This document shows, one piece after another, positions 19,711-43,577 of a stretch of 64,000 bases of DNA. The stretch is taken from IMG/VR virus record IMGVR_UViG_3300028837_001424, positions 48,592 to 112,591 of that record. One strand, written 5' to 3'. The first letter of the stretch is position 1; the number at the start of each line of letters is the position of its first letter. Both the position numbers and the translations under genes were made by a program. Source of the stretch: a virus. The notes beneath the pieces are model-generated. The model was not told the DNA's origin. It saw only the letters and a program-made list of their open reading frames with translations, and searched no databases.

Positions 19711-19873
19711 CCCTGCCGTGCCAAGCCCAACCTAACATCGCCAGACCTCGCATCGCCAAGCCGTACTCCGCCGCGAACCGCCTAGCCATGCCTCGTTTAT
19801 AATTCATTCCTAGCCTCGCCACACCGCACCAAACACTGCGCCACCTAGCCGGACACCGCCCCACCTTGCCCTA
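19711..19873. repeat. Degenerate pentanucleotide array A (CCNNR)
   Basis: Thirty in-phase five-base units in two blocks: 17 units at 19711-19795 and 13 at 19809-19873, split by an AT-rich 13-mer at 19796-19808 with core ATAATT. All 30 units end in a purine and 23 begin CC, while the middle bases vary. On the minus strand the unit is YNNGG. It starts directly after a glycosyltransferase stop codon and lies 3' of the RAMP-like gene on the other strand. A period of five rules against coding. Confidence 0.85.
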
Positions 19874-19875
19874 AC

Positions 19876-19903
19876 TGGGGAGAGTTCTCACATACTCTCC
19901 CCA
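19876..19903. terminator. Hairpin between convergent genes
   Basis: TGGGGAGAGT at 19876-19885 is perfectly complementary to ACTCTCCCCA at 19894-19903, with an 8-base loop. It sits between array A and the stop of the minus-strand RAMP-like gene, so it could end transcription from either side. A U-tract is lacking on both strands. Confidence 0.55.
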
Positions 19904-19910
19904 ATTCGAA

Positions 19911-20507
19911 TCAAAGTATCGAAACTTCGAATCGTCCATATGGCCCGCCCTTTGCAGGACGCCAATCGCCAAGACCTACAGCGTTGCCAGCCAGTTCGAG
20001 CCAGTGGATGAGTCTGTCTTTATCCACAAACTCTTCGTTGTACTGTAGCTCGCCTTCAATACTCCAATCTTCTGGAATAATTGGGCGAGTGCGCATGACG
20101 GTAGCCTGCCCGACACGAACGCCAATGCGGAAGCGGAAGCGTTCATCTTTCCACAGTTCCTTGGGATCTTTAGGACCGTCGTATTGAAGGACATAGTGGT
20201 GGTCACAAAATATACCAACACCTGCTGCCTTTCCTTCCTTCTCCATACGAGCGGCGCTACCCCTGCCAGCCAAGGCCGCCTTTAGTAATCGACCTGGAAT
20301 GACAGGCACTCCGTCATTGATGTATAGCGCACCCATAAACTCAAGGCGCGCCATTTCCTCGAAATCCTTCTCAGTCTTCTTGCGCTGAGAACTCACCTTC
20401 TTGAGCTTTTTTGCCCAAGTATTCAATGGATCTGCTAGCTGTCCATTGTGGAGGATCAGGGGGCTGATCCCCGTCAAACGAAATTTCAGAGTCTTCAGGA
20501 CGTTCAT
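19911..20507 (-). CDS. RAMP-like phage protein A
   Basis: Start set at ATG 20507; 198 residues. It has FRLTGISPLILHNGQ, then KKTEKDFEEMARLEF, a VIPGRLLKAALAG segment like the RAMP IPGxSLKGALR loop, VMRTRP, and a C-terminal AGNAVGLGDWRP...GRFEV, which resembles the Gly-rich RAMP loop. The same order recurs in 23240-23878. RAMP proteins, including Cas7, bind RNA; that fold here is my inference from motifs. The gene starts 137 bp inside the HNH gene in another frame. The family is frequent in phages from memory but has no assigned role. Confidence 0.7.
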   Translation of the reverse strand: MNVLKTLKFRLTGISPLILHNGQLADPLNTWAKKLKKVSSQRKKTEKDFEEMARLEFMGALYINDGVPVIPGRLLKAALAGRGSAARMEKEGKAAGVGIFCDHHYVLQYDGPKDPKELWKDERFRFRIGVRVGQATVMRTRPIIPEDWSIEGELQYNEEFVDKDRLIHWLELAGNAVGLGDWRPAKGGPYGRFEVSIL

Positions 20508-20805
20508 CGAACTTCTCCAATATCTTAACCGGCAAGCCCGCTTCCACATTGTCCTCTATTATCGTTTCGGCTCGACGTGAGTATCGAAGCCCTCTGATAT
20601 ATGAGGTGAGAAAGTCGTGGCATCGACGGCAGACGGTTATGAGATCCTCACCGATCTCTTCTCCGTATCTTTCGTATGTCTTATGATGCACCTCCAATTC
20701 TTCTACACAAGGAACTCCTGTTAATTCGGCAATGCCGAATATTTTTGAAAGTTGACATTCGTAGTTATCTCTTTCTAGGATTGCTTTTCTTACTAGGTTA
20801 TCCAT
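20371..20805 (-). CDS. HNH endonuclease
   Basis: ATG 20805 has GGAG upstream. 144 residues: AILERDNYECQ, then ELEVHHKTYERYGEE and LITVCRRCHDF give the H-N-H metal finger with paired cysteines. The last 45 residues overlap the RAMP-like gene and are Pro, Ser and acid rich, with no domain visible. It is first in a transcript from the promoter at 21228-21256, after a long leader holding array B. Confidence 0.8.
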   Translation of the reverse strand: MDNLVRKAILERDNYECQLSKIFGIAELTGVPCVEELEVHHKTYERYGEEIGEDLITVCRRCHDFLTSYIRGLRYSRRAETIIEDNVEAGLPVKILEKFDERPEDSEISFDGDQPPDPPQWTASRSIEYLGKKAQEGEFSAQED

Positions 20806-20827
20806 AATGGACTCCGAATAAAGTAAT

Positions 20828-21078
20828 CCTTGCCTCGCCCTGTCGTGCCGGACCTTGCCAAACCGTACCAGACCGCGCCCAAACATACACTGCCAGATCC
20901 AGCCACGCCTGGCCGCGCCTCGAATATAATTCCTTCCCTGCCATGCCCCGCCGTATCCCACCGCGCCAGATCGTGCCTAGCCGGACTTCGCCACGCCAAA
21001 CCACGCCTTGAACATAATTGCTGTCCTTGCCGCGCCCCACCAAACCTCTCCATGCAGCACCAAGCCTGGTCGCGCCAA
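20828..21078. repeat. Degenerate pentanucleotide array B (CCNNR)
   Basis: Three blocks of the same unit as array A: 19 units at 20828-20922, 15 at 20936-21010 and about 11 at 21025-21078. They are separated by AT-rich 13- and 14-mers at 20923-20935 and 21011-21024, both holding ATAATT. All 34 units of the first two blocks end in a purine and 27 begin CC. The array lies in the predicted 5' leader (about 415 bases) of the HNH and RAMP-like transcript on the minus strand. Confidence 0.85.
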
Positions 21079-21227
21079 ACCTTAACTTACCGTGCCTCGA
21101 AACCAAAATCCCGCCACCCATTATTCGAGGTTGCCCTACCATGAACAAGCCAAGCTGTAATGGGAAGCGGGAGTCTGATCTCGATAAAAACAAAAGGCTT
21201 GGTAGATGTCCATGGCAGGTTAGTAGA

Positions 21228-21256
21228 AGTGTACCATAGCGGGCACAGTATGTCAA
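21228..21256 (-). promoter_or_regulatory. Sigma-70 promoter for the HNH/RAMP-like module
   Basis: Read on the minus strand: TTGACA (21251-21256), 17 bp, TACACT (21228-21233), with GG before the -10. The sequence upstream of the -35 matches the shared operator found at 22712, 45049, 46648 and 55755 only in its first bases. Confidence 0.75.
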
Positions 21257-21273
21257 GACCAATGTATTAATCG

Positions 21274-21302
21274 TTTAAAACAACCAAATTCCATGATATA
21301 AT
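21274..21302 (+). promoter_or_regulatory. Extended -10 promoter for structured RNA / basic protein
   Basis: TGATATAAT at 21294-21302 is a perfect extended -10 element; TTTAAA lies 17 bp upstream at 21274-21279. It fires divergently from the HNH-module promoter and would start RNA near 21309. Confidence 0.6.
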
Positions 21303-21308
21303 TATCTT

Positions 21309-21868
21309 TGCACTTTACCAAACCAATCGCTTGGTGGCTCGAAGAATACCGTTCTACGGGTTAAAAAAGGCACACACGACAGGTGGCGGTGTGGTTCCAG
21401 GCGATGGGAAGCATAAGGGTCGTGGAGATCGGGCGAATGCGCCGCCTTACCGATCGAGCGCGACATCGTTGGTAGCTCAAAACTACATATCCAGTAGACG
21501 ACGATGTGCGGGCAAGATTCCCGCCAGTGACGTTGATGCTAGCTAGGCCAGTTAGCGGAGTCCTGTGGCCCGAATAATGCGACTGATTGCCGAGAGGTTG
21601 GGAGGATTGGCATCCTCCCCTGAGCGATTGTGTTTGGTGAAGTCATCAGAAAGGAAATTGGTAAATTTCATGGTAAAATAGATTTGCGAGCGCGCCTCTT
21701 CATTGGGCTATATTTCCCCTAATGATGAGAACTACTCCTGAGTAGCGCTTAGCTCAGGAGGCTAAGCTGGTAACAGCGGACGCGGTAGCCGGTGCCGCTA
21801 TACACAGAGACCGGCAATCACTTTGTAACAAAGGAGGCCAACATGACGAACCTTTAGTGAGGTGAATC
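21309..21868 (+). ncRNA. Probable structured RNA or long leader
   Basis: About 560 bases without a convincing gene, led by the promoter above. Stable hairpins include GCGGG/CCCGC near 21510, GGGAGGA/TCCTCCC near 21600, and CTCCTGAG/CTCAGGAG with a ten-base loop near 21740. A CTTTG/CAAAG hairpin overlaps the AAAGGAGG site at 21832. The size and hairpin density suggest either a large ornate ncRNA or a regulatory 5' UTR for the basic protein that follows. No known RNA class recognised. Confidence 0.45.
21843..21857 (+). CDS. Possible four-residue upstream ORF
   Basis: An AAAGGAGG site precedes ATG 21843, which reads only four codons before TAG at 21855-21857. A second site (GAGGTGA) then leads to the basic protein at 21869. 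The layout resembles a regulatory upstream ORF, though chance is possible. Confidence 0.3.
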   Translation: MTNL

Positions 21869-22072
21869 ATGTCCAAAATTCAGAAAGGCGGTAAGAAAAA
21901 CCGCAAACATGGCCGTGCAGCGCGCAAGCCCAAAACTGCACGGTATCGTATTTCCAATCGTCGAGCAAAAAATAAAACCAAAAGAGTTCTGCGTAGCAGC
22001 GGCAAAAAGGCTGCAAAACAATACGCGCGGGAACAAAACACAACTGGCTATCTACTCAAATTGCTAAGTTGA
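21869..22072 (+). CDS. Small very basic protein
   Basis: 67 residues, about one third Lys or Arg, with KKNRKHGRAARKPK, NRRAKNKTKR and SGKKAAKQYAREQ. Start at ATG 21869 with GAGGTGA eight bases upstream. It could be a nucleic-acid-binding or nucleoid-type protein; no family recognised. A terminator follows at 22140-22173. Confidence 0.6.
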   Translation: MSKIQKGGKKNRKHGRAARKPKTARYRISNRRAKNKTKRVLRSSGKKAAKQYAREQNTTGYLLKLLS

Positions 22073-22139
22073 ACACTGATATGTAACAACTTATTGCACG
22101 ATAACATATTTTATGTTATTGCGAATTTTAATGTTAATG

Positions 22140-22173
22140 AAAAAGCCCCTAAGCTGGAAGCCAGGGACTTTTT
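22140..22173. terminator. Bidirectional intrinsic terminator
   Basis: AAAAAGCCCCT at 22140-22150 pairs with AGGGACTTTTT at 22163-22173 with one mismatch, giving a stem flanked by A and T runs that works on both strands. It separates the basic-protein gene from the convergent exported-protein gene. A second hairpin, ATAACAT/ATGTTAT, lies at 22101-22119. Confidence 0.8.
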
Positions 22174-22226
22174 CGTATCGCGCCATTGTGCCACTCCGGC
22201 ACGGTTACATTATATCACAACTGGGC

Positions 22227-22664
22227 TTACTCAGCGACGATTGGCTCAGGGAGCATTTCTCCCATAATGTCGGTTTCTATTTCGGCCAATCTATAAGTAT
22301 CCGTATCAGTAAGATGCTCAAAACCGACTCGGTAATACGTCCGCACGTTTTGATTAAAGCTAACGTAGTCAATCCAGCCGCGAATAACGTAATAATCAAG
22401 AGCGTTAGGCTCATTCTTGTATTCCTTCATGTCACATTCGGACCACTCTTGAAATACTGCTCCCGTCTTATCCCATAGAATATCTTCGATGGTCTTTTGA
22501 GAGCGGCTGCATAGCTGACCCTTAATTGACGGGCCTTGATCACTGGTAGTTGCTTTACCATTTAGTAAATAATGTGCGGAAGTGGCAACGGCATATGCCA
22601 GCAGAATGAGAGTAAAAACGGCAACATATCTTAGACATCCTTTACCGGTCGTATTTTTCTTCAT
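22227..22664 (-). CDS. Membrane-anchored or exported hypothetical protein
   Basis: 145 residues. Residues 12-33 (YVAVFTLILLAYAVATSAHY) form a signal anchor, after a Lys-rich start. The rest is soluble, with two Cys and a YYVIRGWIDYV strand. No family recognised. It has its own promoter at 22688-22716 with the shared operator and may act at the host envelope (inference). Confidence 0.6.
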   Translation of the reverse strand: MKKNTTGKGCLRYVAVFTLILLAYAVATSAHYLLNGKATTSDQGPSIKGQLCSRSQKTIEDILWDKTGAVFQEWSECDMKEYKNEPNALDYYVIRGWIDYVSFNQNVRTYYRVGFEHLTDTDTYRLAEIETDIMGEMLPEPIVAE

Positions 22665-22687
22665 GGTATTTATCCTTTACTGTGATT

Positions 22688-22716
22688 ATGCTACCCGATA
22701 CGGTACAGTATGTCAA
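22688..22716 (-). promoter_or_regulatory. Sigma-70 promoter with shared operator
   Basis: Minus strand: TTGACA (22711-22716), 17 bp, TAGCAT (22688-22693), preceded by GGG. The 21-bp operator at 22712-22732 covers the -35 and extends upstream; it holds two TAC-containing half sites eight bases apart and recurs at 45049, 46648 and 55755. Confidence 0.75.
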
Positions 22717-22742
22717 GTTACCTTGGTACTATCAATAAATAA

Positions 22743-22768
22743 AGAGGCGGGTATATATACCTGCCTCT
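22743..22768 (-). terminator. Intrinsic terminator of the GIY-YIG/RAMP-like transcript
   Basis: AGAGGC...GCCTCT at 22743-22748 and 22763-22768 form a nearly perfect stem with the inner GGTA/TACC arm. On the minus strand a T-rich stretch follows. It would end the transcript that carries array C just before the next promoter. Confidence 0.75.
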
Positions 22769-22806
22769 TGTGCTGTCTGGCAACCAGACGATCACCCACC
22801 ACTGAT

Positions 22807-22859
22807 TGTCAACTTATAAGTTGTCAAATGATGATGGAATGACAACAAATATGTTATCA
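22807..22859. promoter_or_regulatory. Two matching palindromic operator-like sites
   Basis: Two 20-bp palindromes of the form TGWCAAC-N6-GTTRTCA at 22807-22826 and 22840-22859, with centres 33 bp apart (about three DNA turns). The first is a near-perfect dyad with a 14-bp perfect core. The spacing suggests co-operative binding of a dimeric protein. They lie at the 3' end of the 22882-23076 gene, so their target is unclear. Confidence 0.5.
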
Positions 22860-22881
22860 ACAACTAAAGCTCAATGCGATT

Positions 22882-23076
22882 TTAGATCTCATTGATAAAT
22901 TGTCCAAGTCGTTCAACTTTTTCTTGAACAACACTAAAGTTTTTTGCGACACGAGCAACATCTCCAAAAATCAAGCCCCTATTTGCTTTATCAAGAGCTT
23001 TATTAATGTCTTGATACAAGCTCTTGGCAGTCTCGATGGGTTTGTAATTGGCACAGTTCTCACAAGTTTTGTTCAT
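22882..23076 (-). CDS. Small CxxC protein
   Basis: 64 residues, start ATG 23076 with GGAGGT eight bases upstream. Residues 4-9 are a CENC pair; the rest is helical (ALDKANRGL, VVQEKVERLGQFI). It is the last gene of the array C transcript and begins 25 bases after the array. Role unknown. Confidence 0.55.
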   Translation of the reverse strand: MNKTCENCANYKPIETAKSLYQDINKALDKANRGLIFGDVARVAKNFSVVQEKVERLGQFINEI

Positions 23077-23100
23077 CTTAGTTACCTCCGATGTAAAAAG

Positions 23101-23235
23101 CTTTGCTATGCTTTGCTCTGCTTTGCTGCGCTCTGCTGCGCTGCGCTTTGCTAAGCTTTGCTGGGCTCGGCTACGCTGCGCTTGGCTGCGCTCCGCTTGG
23201 CTAGGCTCGGCTGCGCTCTGCTGCGCTGCGCTACG
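23101..23235. repeat. Perfect degenerate pentanucleotide array C (CTNNG x 27)
   Basis: Twenty-seven consecutive five-base units, every one of the form CTNNG on the plus strand (CNNAG on the minus strand), with no insertion or deletion. The two middle bases vary freely. It begins four bases after the stop of RAMP-like gene B and ends before the ribosome site of the 22882-23076 gene. Unlike arrays A and B it has no AT-rich punctuation and uses CT in place of CC. Confidence 0.95.
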
Positions 23236-23239
23236 ACCA

Positions 23240-23878
23240 CTATTCCATTGTTACAGGGTTAGTATCCTTCTCAAGAGTTTGCACAGTCCCGATTTCTTTA
23301 ACTTTCTTCCATTCAACTACTTCAAATGAACCAAAGGTTGGTCTATAGGCACATAGCCCTACGAATATACCGCCACGATTAAACCAATCCTCGGCCTTGG
23401 AAATGCTGAAATACTCATTTTCGTAAATGCTTATATTGAATTTTAATGACCAGGGCAAATCCAAAACGGGACGACTCACATTGACCCTAACTTTTGGGTT
23501 TGGCCTTGCCATTCTTGTATCTATGTAAAATGGAGACTTATTCAAATCTTCGGCGACCTCCAGTTTTACATTGCTTTCTTCGTGTTCTTTTCCATTTTGG
23601 AAAGGAATATATGCGGGTTGCACAGAGATACAACCACGGATCACTGGAGACAAAGTTTTCCACTCTTTGCTATTTACAAACATCCGTAGGCAGGAATGGC
23701 TATCTTTACTCGCCAGAAAGCCTTCGATGCTTGAGCTTGGCAAGCAGACGGTTTTGCCGTCGCGGGGGTCGAGGTAAATTTTTTGCTCGACGGGCGTTTC
23801 GTCCTGCGAGACCCATTTGTCGAACATGATCGGCGTCAGACCGTTTAAGACTACTTGTACTTTCACCATGTTTAGCAT
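23240..23878 (-). CDS. RAMP-like phage protein B
   Basis: 212 residues, ATG 23878 preceded by AAAGGAG. It follows RAMP-like A in order: VVLNGLTPIMFDKW, then CLPSSSIEGFLAS (the IP..S.KG-like loop), SRPVLD, and a C-terminal GGIFVGLCAYRPTFGSFEV. Overall identity is low but these anchors and their spacing agree, so the two are distant paralogues. It starts 173 bp inside the GIY-YIG gene and is followed four bases later by array C. RNA binding is inferred from fold resemblance only. Confidence 0.65.
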   Translation of the reverse strand: MLNMVKVQVVLNGLTPIMFDKWVSQDETPVEQKIYLDPRDGKTVCLPSSSIEGFLASKDSHSCLRMFVNSKEWKTLSPVIRGCISVQPAYIPFQNGKEHEESNVKLEVAEDLNKSPFYIDTRMARPNPKVRVNVSRPVLDLPWSLKFNISIYENEYFSISKAEDWFNRGGIFVGLCAYRPTFGSFEVVEWKKVKEIGTVQTLEKDTNPVTME

Positions 23879-24236
23879 TGTTCTTGCTCCTTTCGCTTAT
23901 AAAGCGGCGCGACTGGTCAACCAATTCTCGGCGCGCATCACTTATTCTTTCTATTAGAGGTTGCTCTTTTCCTTCCAACCAGTTTATTACGAGCTTTAGA
24001 ATTTCATCATCAAGTTTAAATATCTCCCGATCATCAAAGCAATAAGAAGCCAGTAGGCACTTAAGTTCATCTTCGACTTTCAGGGGTTCATCAACTAGGC
24101 TGGCGTGGCATATTGTTAATTTGCTGTTGGCGGCTAAAAAAGCACGATAGCGCCTATTGAAATCGTCGGCTTTTCCTATTTTGAATAGATTATCAAATCC
24201 GAGGTCAAATAGGTAAACGTAGCCGCTAGACATCAT
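23706..24236 (-). CDS. GIY-YIG-like (T5orf172/MUG113-type) nuclease
   Basis: 176 residues. GYVYLFDLGFDNLFKIGKADDFNRRYRAF is the GIY-YIG-like core of the T5orf172 group (YVYL, FKIGKA, R.YR). VEDELKCLLASYCF and REIFKLDDE continue that domain. After residue 100 it becomes helical and then basic (ARRAKNLPRPPRRQNR), the basic part overlapping RAMP-like gene B in another frame. First gene after the promoter at 24257-24285. Confidence 0.75.
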   Translation of the reverse strand: MMSSGYVYLFDLGFDNLFKIGKADDFNRRYRAFLAANSKLTICHASLVDEPLKVEDELKCLLASYCFDDREIFKLDDEILKLVINWLEGKEQPLIERISDARRELVDQSRRFISERSKNNAKHGESTSSLKRSDADHVRQMGLAGRNARRAKNLPRPPRRQNRLLAKLKHRRLSGE

Positions 24237-24256
24237 TCTCCTTCATTTGTAACTTA

Positions 24257-24285
24257 ATCATATCACATACTTGATTATGAGGCAA
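24257..24285 (-). promoter_or_regulatory. Promoter for the GIY-YIG/RAMP-like module
   Basis: Minus strand: TTGCCT (24280-24285), 17 bp, TATGAT (24257-24262). The gene starts at 24236 after AAGGAG. No shared operator is seen here. Confidence 0.65.
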
Positions 24286-41863: not shown

Positions 41864-43210
41864 TCAATCTCCTTCTGATTGAACATCCCTTAGTGCCGGA
41901 ATGCGTTTGCCCTCAATTAATTCAGGAACGCATATGATCACGCATTTTTCTTCATCCTGTTCGCCAATGCCAGCCATCGATGCCGTCTTAATCATGTCCT
42001 TTGTTGGCTTGTATAGGCAGGCCAACACTCCTCGTTGCGCCCTCTCTTTGGTGACAGTGCCGATCAGATCTCTTACATGTGCGAGGTGATTGCGCCCGCC
42101 TTTGACCGAGATAATTGTTTTGTAAACCTCACCGTCTTTAAGAACGTCCACCAACACACCATCAATACCGCTATCCTTGCCTTTCTTAGCAGTCTTTTGT
42201 TTGACCTTATTTACCTCAAGAACATTCAATACCCATGCTTGGAACTGGAATTTATCTCGCATAGCCAATGCTTCTGCTTGCTTGAAGGTGTGAGGTTCGC
42301 CACTAATTTCTACTTCAAACCCAGCCTCTTGTAATCGTCGCTCAGCTATGTCGATCGCCATGAAGGTAAGATCACATCCTATGCCGACACGCCCTAGTTT
42401 GGCAGCTACCACCACTGTAGTACCAGATCCGCAGAATGGATCGAATACTACATCGCCTGGATTGCTTGAAGCTTTGATAATGCGCTCTAGAAGTCGCTGA
42501 GGCTTCTGGGTTTGGTAACCTGTGTATTCGATTGATGAGCGTGGGGCAATCCCAATACCTGTCCACCAATCCTCGGGAATCTTACCTTTGACAATGTACT
42601 TTGGGTCATCTATATTAGATTTGCCGCCCTTGAACCCGCCGGCGTGTGGTCCACCATCAGCATGAGGTATCCTAACTTCGTCTTTATTAAACGTCCAGGC
42701 TTTACCAATTGAATACCAGAGAATATTGTCATGTTTACGATTAAACTGGCGCATACCTGGAGAACCTGGACCTGTGTACGCCCATATTACCTCATTGCGG
42801 AAGTTGTCAGCACCAAATATTGCATCCATTAACGATCGCAAGTGATGTACTGCAAACTTGTCACAATGTAAGTAGATGCTCCCAGTCTCTTTCAATAGCC
42901 TTCGACATTCAATTAACCTCTCGGCCATAAAGTAAAGATAGGAGAGCATCCCACAACTACCAATGATCTTGAGCATACCTTCGGTCCATTTGGAGATAGA
43001 GTTTCCGCGCTTCACTAAGCGCTCGTAAAGCCTCATATCACTAGAGTCCCACGACCAGGTATCATCAAAGGCTTTTGCTTGTCCATTGGCCACTATAACG
43101 TTGTATACCTTTTTTGAGTTGAATGGGGGGTCTAGGTAGATGAGATCAACGCTTTCATCTGCCATGTCTTGCATAAAGGTTAGGTTATCTCCAAAGTGCA
43201 AGCGATGCAT
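41864..43210 (-). CDS. DNA methyltransferase fused to a PD-(D/E)xK-like domain
   Basis: Start at ATG 43210 (GGGGATCAAT upstream); 448 residues. LIYLDPPFN is motif IV near 30 and VVFDPFCGSGTT motif I near 263, the order of beta-class N6-adenine/N4-cytosine enzymes. Beyond residue 330, FQAWVLNVLE, DSGIDGVLVDV and TIISVKGG give a possible nuclease D...xxK core, with a transcription-like HVRDLIGTVTKERA end. It may be a restriction-modification fusion. Confidence 0.8.
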   Translation of the reverse strand: MHRLHFGDNLTFMQDMADESVDLIYLDPPFNSKKVYNVIVANGQAKAFDDTWSWDSSDMRLYERLVKRGNSISKWTEGMLKIIGSCGMLSYLYFMAERLIECRRLLKETGSIYLHCDKFAVHHLRSLMDAIFGADNFRNEVIWAYTGPGSPGMRQFNRKHDNILWYSIGKAWTFNKDEVRIPHADGGPHAGGFKGGKSNIDDPKYIVKGKIPEDWWTGIGIAPRSSIEYTGYQTQKPQRLLERIIKASSNPGDVVFDPFCGSGTTVVVAAKLGRVGIGCDLTFMAIDIAERRLQEAGFEVEISGEPHTFKQAEALAMRDKFQFQAWVLNVLEVNKVKQKTAKKGKDSGIDGVLVDVLKDGEVYKTIISVKGGRNHLAHVRDLIGTVTKERAQRGVLACLYKPTKDMIKTASMAGIGEQDEEKCVIICVPELIEGKRIPALRDVQSEGD

Positions 43211-43229
43211 ATTGATCCCCAAAGTTATT

Positions 43230-43577
43230 TTAATTCCAAGTGAGATAGATTGATCTAATACCAAGAACAAAATTTATTATTCCTAATAGGTTAAAGATAA
43301 GCCCTATAAGGCTGGGTTCCCAAACGTGCCAAGTTAGAAGCATTGCCGGTCCAGTATATGCATTTGGTGGCTTAAACTTACTTTTGGTTGTTTGATCTTT
43401 CCACACACCAATACTAAACAGAATCGCACCCGCAGAAAGTGTCTGTAACTGAGAATTTGAAACACCCTTAGTTTCAATACAGAGCGAGGTGATAAACACA
43501 ACAACTCCTGTATAAAAAATCGCTTTATACCATTTGTCAATAGCCATTGCCTTAAAAAAGTCAGTCATTATATTCAT
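43230..43577 (-). CDS. Membrane protein
   Basis: 115 residues with three hydrophobic spans (about 20-35, 45-60 and 88-105). It lies between the methyltransferase and the lipoprotein genes, with GAGGGTCA before the start. Role unknown; an exclusion or envelope function is possible. Confidence 0.55.
   Translation of the reverse strand: MNIMTDFFKAMAIDKWYKAIFYTGVVVFITSLCIETKGVSNSQLQTLSAGAILFSIGVWKDQTTKSKFKPPNAYTGPAMLLTWHVWEPSLIGLIFNLLGIINFVLGIRSIYLTWN

What the first reader, a model, noticed from the sequence alone, without database searches (positions are those of the whole stretch)
19711..24285. Duplicated nuclease + RAMP-like protein + five-base repeat array module
Seen: two minus-strand modules share one layout. 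Each has a promoter, a nuclease gene (HNH in one, GIY-YIG/T5orf172-like in the other), a RAMP-like gene starting inside the nuclease gene in another frame, and a degenerate pentanucleotide array just 3' of the RAMP-like gene. Module A has a second array in its 5' leader. Inference: RAMP folds bind RNA, so the array transcripts could be guides, decoys or assembly scaffolds for these proteins, with the nuclease as effector. I know of no described system with this make-up.
Basis: partly seen in the sequence, partly recalled or inferred. Interest (0 to 1): 0.88.

Follow-up and report, generated by a model that had tools for sequence, protein, structure and literature searches.

The report
Two RNA-guided VIPR modules in phage
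This phage carries two copies of a recently described CRISPR-like weapon called VIPR, in which short five-base-repeat RNAs guide a protein to matching DNA; the two copies use different repeat alphabets, and two amino acids in the protein appear to decide which alphabet is read.

Summary
The layout is real. Both "RAMP-like" genes belong to one family (phrog_4652), fold like Cas7/Csm3, and match the solved Vipr protein of phage SUSP1. The arrays are phased guide-RNA repeats. The preprint's mechanism: the NN of each GGY/NN repeat pairs with double-stranded DNA, skipping one base between dinucleotides.

The two modules are not a recent duplication. Module A has an HNH nuclease, GGY/NN repeats and five guides. 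Module B has a GIY-YIG nuclease, AGC/NN repeats and one 27-unit array. Their Vipr proteins are 22% identical and lie in different clades. A search for arrays alone recovered Vipr genes beside both alphabets, almost always on the same strand. HNH-VIPR recurs in three viral contigs and five rhizobial or Azospirillum plasmids.

New here: two Vipr sites (R139 and D181 in A; V134 and A177 in B) track the alphabet across about 13 code switches on the best tree. They exceed every shuffled-label control, but only 3-5 switches lie on well-supported branches. No natural target was found.

The parts
21228..21256 (-). promoter-like site of module A (TTGACA-17-TACACT, TG-extended)
   Evidence: consensus scan, 10 of 12 matches; weak on its own
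21022..21096 (-). vrRNA A1 repeat tract, 15 five-base units (GGY/NN)
   Evidence: strict 5-nt phase
20933..21007 (-). vrRNA A2 repeat tract, 15 units
   Evidence: followed by linker GAATTATATTCGA
20830..20919 (-). vrRNA A3 repeat tract, 18 units
20371..20805 (-). HNH nuclease, accessory (vap-like) gene of module A
   Evidence: Pfam HNH above cut-off; homologous HNH directly upstream of Vipr in L131, L151, L246 and in plasmid loci L311, L313, L314, L321, L322
19911..20507 (-). Vipr A (RAMP protein, GGY reader; R139 and D181)
   Evidence: phrog_4652 E 3e-50; SUSP1 Vipr 36pp E 2e-29; Csm3-like fold
19870..19909 (-). hairpin between Vipr A stop codon and vrRNA A4
   Evidence: MFE -21.9 kcal/mol, z -4.1
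19806..19870 (-). vrRNA A4 repeat tract, 13 units
19713..19792 (-). vrRNA A5 repeat tract, 16 units
24257..24285 (-). promoter-like site of module B (TTGCCT-17-TATGAT, TG-extended)
   Evidence: consensus scan, 9 of 12 matches; weak
23706..24236 (-). GIY-YIG (T5orf172) nuclease-like gene of module B
   Evidence: Pfam T5orf172 25.8 bits, cut-off 20; no relative beside any other Vipr fetched and none in named phages
23240..23878 (-). Vipr B (RAMP protein, AGC reader; V134 and A177)
   Evidence: phrog_4652 E 8e-7; profile of its clade matches SUSP1 Vipr 36pp E 4e-31; Csm3/Cas7-like fold
23098..23232 (-). 27 perfect AGC/NN units, probably two guides (23153-23232 and 23098-23152, each ending AGCAA AGCTT)
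   Evidence: the split into two guides is inferred

Best explanation
The region holds two VIPR systems of different lineage, side by side in a phage. Shown here by sequence and fold: each has a Vipr RAMP protein and phased pentanucleotide guide arrays on the Vipr strand, beside a nuclease gene that overlaps vipr. Inferred from the preprint's experiments on SUSP1: Vipr subunits line up along the array RNA, one per unit; the constant triplet anchors the RNA and the two variable bases of each unit together read double-stranded DNA with one base skipped between dinucleotides. Inferred with less support: the HNH or GIY-YIG protein cuts the bound DNA of a rival phage, prophage or satellite. The two modules use different constant triplets (GGY and AGC), which would keep each Vipr loaded with its own guides.
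For: Sequence match of Vipr A to the solved SUSP1 Vipr, E 2e-29, and of the Vipr B clade profile, E 4e-31; both in phrog_4652; Csm3/Cas7-type fold; the SUSP1 locus itself shows the same gene with GGY arrays. Arrays in strict 5-nt phase, on the Vipr strand. Arrays searched blind in viral contigs led to Vipr in 91 of 120 GGY loci and 40 of 119 AGC loci, same strand 511 to 13. HNH upstream of Vipr recurs in eight further loci. Mechanism of relatives.
Against: No natural target was found for four module A guides (A2-A5) or for the B1 half of the array (one exact 8- or 9-unit core each). The GIY-YIG gene has no counterpart beside other Viprs, so its role may be incidental. The preprint links nuclease accessories to host defence types, whereas this is a phage contig. 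vrRNA expression here is untested, and module A's tails are very short compared with SUSP1.
Confidence: 0.9

Rival explanations
1. VIPR of the silencing kind: Vipr-vrRNA complexes repress transcription of rival elements, and the nuclease genes act separately, for example as homing endonucleases that spread the module.
For: SUSP1 VIPR works by repression without a nuclease; the HNH-Vipr pair sits between terminase and portal genes in L151 and L246, as homing genes often do; the GIY-YIG gene is seen only once.
Against: HNH and Vipr overlap or abut in eight further loci, including plasmids, which points to a joint function.
Confidence: 0.35
2. The arrays are DNA binding sites or operators for the RAMP proteins rather than sources of guide RNA.
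For: The arrays lie in intergenic DNA next to the genes.
Against: Strong strand bias of arrays relative to vipr, 511 to 13, variable NN at fixed phase, and sRNA-seq and pull-down in relatives.
Confidence: 0.03
3. The arrays are ordinary microsatellites from replication slippage and their nearness to RAMP genes is accidental.
For: The AGC array is perfect in its constant bases and low in complexity; 79 of 119 AGC loci showed no Vipr gene in the stretch fetched.
Against: Strand bias, recurrence beside divergent Viprs, absence from control loci, clade-wise alphabet.
Confidence: 0.02

Closest known systems
VIPR of Escherichia phage SUSP1 (type II; PMC13142463, PDB 36pp)
   Same: homologous Vipr protein, GGY/NN guide tracts on the vipr strand, phage-borne
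   Different: SUSP1 has one module with a predicted DNA-binding vap downstream; here there are two modules with nuclease genes upstream and overlapping, module B uses AGC, and module A guides have 13-14 nt linkers instead of a structured tail
Nuclease-bearing VIPR types (within III-V of the preprint)
   Same: predicted nuclease accessory gene next to vipr
   Different: the preprint places its nuclease types with host defence; this one is in a phage contig; the exact type could not be assigned because supplements are not readable here
CRISPR type III Csm3/Cas7 backbone
   Same: RAMP fold; periodic RNA binding
   Different: no cas genes, no CRISPR repeats or spacers, 5-nt instead of 6-nt period
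TIGR-Tas (recalled, not tested)
   Same: phage-linked RNA-guided system with repeat arrays
   Different: recalled as built on Nop-domain proteins; no such protein was seen here

Membership tests
VIPR | Vipr protein: small RAMP with RRM core, G-loop and thumb | tested here: met
   G-loop GLGDWRPAKGGPYGRF in A, GLCAYRPTFGSF in B; the thumb was not separately checked
VIPR | vrRNA tract of 9-16 GGY/NN units or related consensus, next to vipr, same strand | tested here: met
   module A: 13-18 units, mostly GGY; module B: 27 AGC units, consistent with two tracts
VIPR | hypervariable NN positions | tested here: met
   NN differ from unit to unit and between the guides by inspection; no entropy statistic was computed
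VIPR | structured invariable 3' tail on each vrRNA | tested here: inconclusive
   module A has a recurring 13-14 nt A/T-rich linker, a shorter one in relative L131; no stable fold shown; module B has none obvious
VIPR | vap gene with a DNA-related function | tested here: met
   HNH and T5orf172 domains
VIPR | target recognition by the 1-nt skip rule | tested here: inconclusive
   no target found for five guide cores; no self target in the contig
VIPR | array transcripts bound by Vipr | not testable with these tools
   needs sRNA-seq and pull-down
CRISPR-Cas | cas genes and CRISPR repeat-spacer array | tested here: not met
   no padloc match for the Viprs or the HNH and only a weak unnamed one for the GIY-YIG protein; arrays are 5-nt tandem units

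The most novel reading that the evidence does not exclude
Two residues of Vipr set the repeat alphabet: an acidic residue in the G-loop together with a basic residue two before the other conserved RP (D181 and R139 in Vipr A) read guanine at the first repeat position (GGY), and their loss (A177 and V134 in Vipr B) goes with adenine (AGC). A phage can therefore run two insulated RNA-guided systems in one cell.
Probability: 0.5. Interest if true: 0.82.

Novelty: new variant of a known kind. Interest (0 to 1): 0.62.

Why it matters
VIPR is proposed as an ancestor of CRISPR RAMPs, and how Vipr recognises its guide scaffold is basic to that claim and to its use as a tool. A natural pair of modules with different alphabets, plus a two-residue correlate, makes scaffold specificity directly testable and suggests that orthogonal VIPRs could be run in one cell. 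Finding nuclease-bearing VIPR in a phage also widens the preprint's picture, which ties nucleases to host defence.

Tried and rejected
Single-protein and full-alignment searches of viral contigs for Vipr gave nothing; searching by array pattern worked. Target searches by the 1-nt skip rule with cores of A2, A5, A3, B1 (viral) and A4 (genomes) gave 5, 7, 13, 35 and 2 exact core hits, but matches outside the core were near chance (at most 9 of 20), so no target is claimed. Skip lengths 0-3 against 2.3 Mb of fetched DNA gave only the arrays themselves, at skip 3. Rfam found nothing. Host assignment failed: the best protein match was to Clavibacter and Microbacterium phages at about 30%, too weak. 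Considered and dropped: CRISPR, operator arrays, microsatellite, recent duplication. The VIPR type could not be assigned because the preprint's supplements are not readable here, and whether its fig. S17 already lists AGC is unknown.

Full report
OBSERVATION. On the minus strand, module A reads leader guides A1-A3 (21096-20830), HNH gene (20805-20371), RAMP-like gene (20507-19911), hairpin (19909-19870), guides A4 and A5 (19870-19713). Module B reads GIY-YIG gene (24236-23706), RAMP-like gene (23878-23240), array (23232-23098). Each RAMP-like gene starts inside the nuclease gene in another frame (137 and 173 nt overlap). The arrays keep strict 5-nt phase: 77 units in five module A tracts, mostly GGY followed by two variable bases, and 27 perfect AGCNN units in module B. 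No other run of 5 or more such units exists in the 112,591-base contig.

NOT CHANCE. In 60 control viral loci (543 kb) there is no Vipr gene and no array. Among 17 loci found by protein similarity alone, in phages of Escherichia, Mycobacterium, Gordonia and Pseudomonas and in rhizobial and Azospirillum plasmids, 14 carry at least 8 of 12 phased GGY units, all on the Vipr strand; no control reaches 8. Arrays lay on the Vipr strand 511 times and on the other 13 times. The AGC loci without Vipr were not explained.

WHAT IT IS. Both RAMP-like proteins match phrog_4652, a family of unknown function. AlphaFold models (pLDDT 96.3 and 91.1) match CRISPR effector structures, chiefly Csm3/Cas7. A literature search found the VIPR preprint: Vipr RAMP protein, vrRNAs of 9-16 GGY/NN repeats, DNA recognition by NN with a one-base skip, repression of rival phages and satellites. 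Its model phage SUSP1 carries the same gene, and the solved SUSP1 Vipr (36pp) matches Vipr A at E 2e-29 and the Vipr B clade profile at E 4e-31. Vipr B alone found no convincing PDB match. The region is therefore VIPR, twice.

NOT A RECENT DUPLICATION. Vipr A and B are 22% identical. On the tree A is nearest L131, L246, L233 and L151, all GGY; B is nearest L103, L094, L049 and L042, all AGC (neither placement lies in a strongly supported set). The nucleases are unrelated. Two separate acquisitions fit better.

NUCLEASES. The HNH gene upstream of Vipr recurs in L131, L151 and L246 with an overlap of about 137-140 nt, and in plasmid loci L311, L313, L314, L321 and L322 with varying or no overlap. 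The aligned HNH proteins keep the paired His, Cys and Cys-His positions. The GIY-YIG gene was found beside no other Vipr, so its part in the system is uncertain.

TWO ALPHABETS. Viprs divide by array alphabet: 92 GGY and 28 AGC among 120 labelled Viprs; only one locus (L092) showed both motifs. The best tree needs 13 changes of alphabet against 25 for shuffled labels. Two alignment sites stand out. The residue before W/F/Y-RP in the G-loop is D or E in 80 of 90 GGY Viprs and in 0 of 28 AGC Viprs. The residue two before the other conserved RP is R or K in 84 of 90 GGY and in 1 of 27 AGC Viprs. In Vipr A these are D181 and R139; in Vipr B, A177 and V134. At least one such charge is present in 90 of 92 GGY and 1 of 28 AGC Viprs. 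Over 13 independent pairs the combined trait goes the expected way in 11-13 and never the other way. These sites rank first of 2068 column-by-class tests, and 300 label shuffles with 13 pairs never exceeded 8 net, against 10-12 observed. Limits: only 3 pairs (5 on a tree without the two columns) lie on well-supported branches, too few for significance; alphabet labels come from pattern-selected loci; the shuffles do not keep tree structure. That these residues touch the first repeat base is inference.

HOW IT LIKELY WORKS. Inferred from the preprint: Vipr coats its vrRNA one unit at a time and presents the NN pairs to DNA. Inferred with less support: the nuclease cuts the bound DNA. Different alphabets would stop each Vipr taking the other's guides. 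Targets are unknown: exact cores of A2, A3, A4, A5 and B1 gave only chance-level matches, and no self target exists in the contig.

VERDICT. The system is known since 2026. The locus is a new variant: two VIPR modules with two alphabets and two nuclease types in one phage. The residue-alphabet correlation is the part most likely to be new, but the preprint's supplements could not be checked.

Noticed in passing
window 21310-21870 (+): Candidate large structured RNA between the two modules: MFE -208.6 kcal/mol, z -4.6, long closing helix, promoter-like TTTAAA-17-TATAAT just upstream (21274-21302); no Rfam match and no blastn match in named phages.
   Followed up: partly
window 21869-22072 (+): Small, very basic 67-aa ORF directly after the structured RNA candidate; no Pfam or PHROG match.
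   Followed up: no
L002 3753-3803, 3876-3940, 5210-5262, 5346-5405; L003 1650-1699, 2981-3030, 3098-3147: Between guide tracts in mycobacteriophage LittleE and Gordonia phage MakoManhole lie elements that look like tRNA minihelices (acceptor-like stem plus T-arm with TTCGA loop), with stems that differ between copies yet mostly still pair. They might be processing signals.
   Followed up: partly
L010-L128: 79 of 119 loci with AGCNN arrays show no detectable Vipr in the fetched stretch; some may hold divergent RAMPs, others are cut or low-complexity.
   Followed up: no
L312, L321, L322: Vipr genes on Bradyrhizobium plasmids are followed by AAA-family ATPase genes, with a metallophosphoesterase gene in L312 and L322, possibly a larger defence cluster.
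   Followed up: no
window 41864-43270 (-): DNA methyltransferase gene in the phage (phrog_67, E 1e-66).
   Followed up: no
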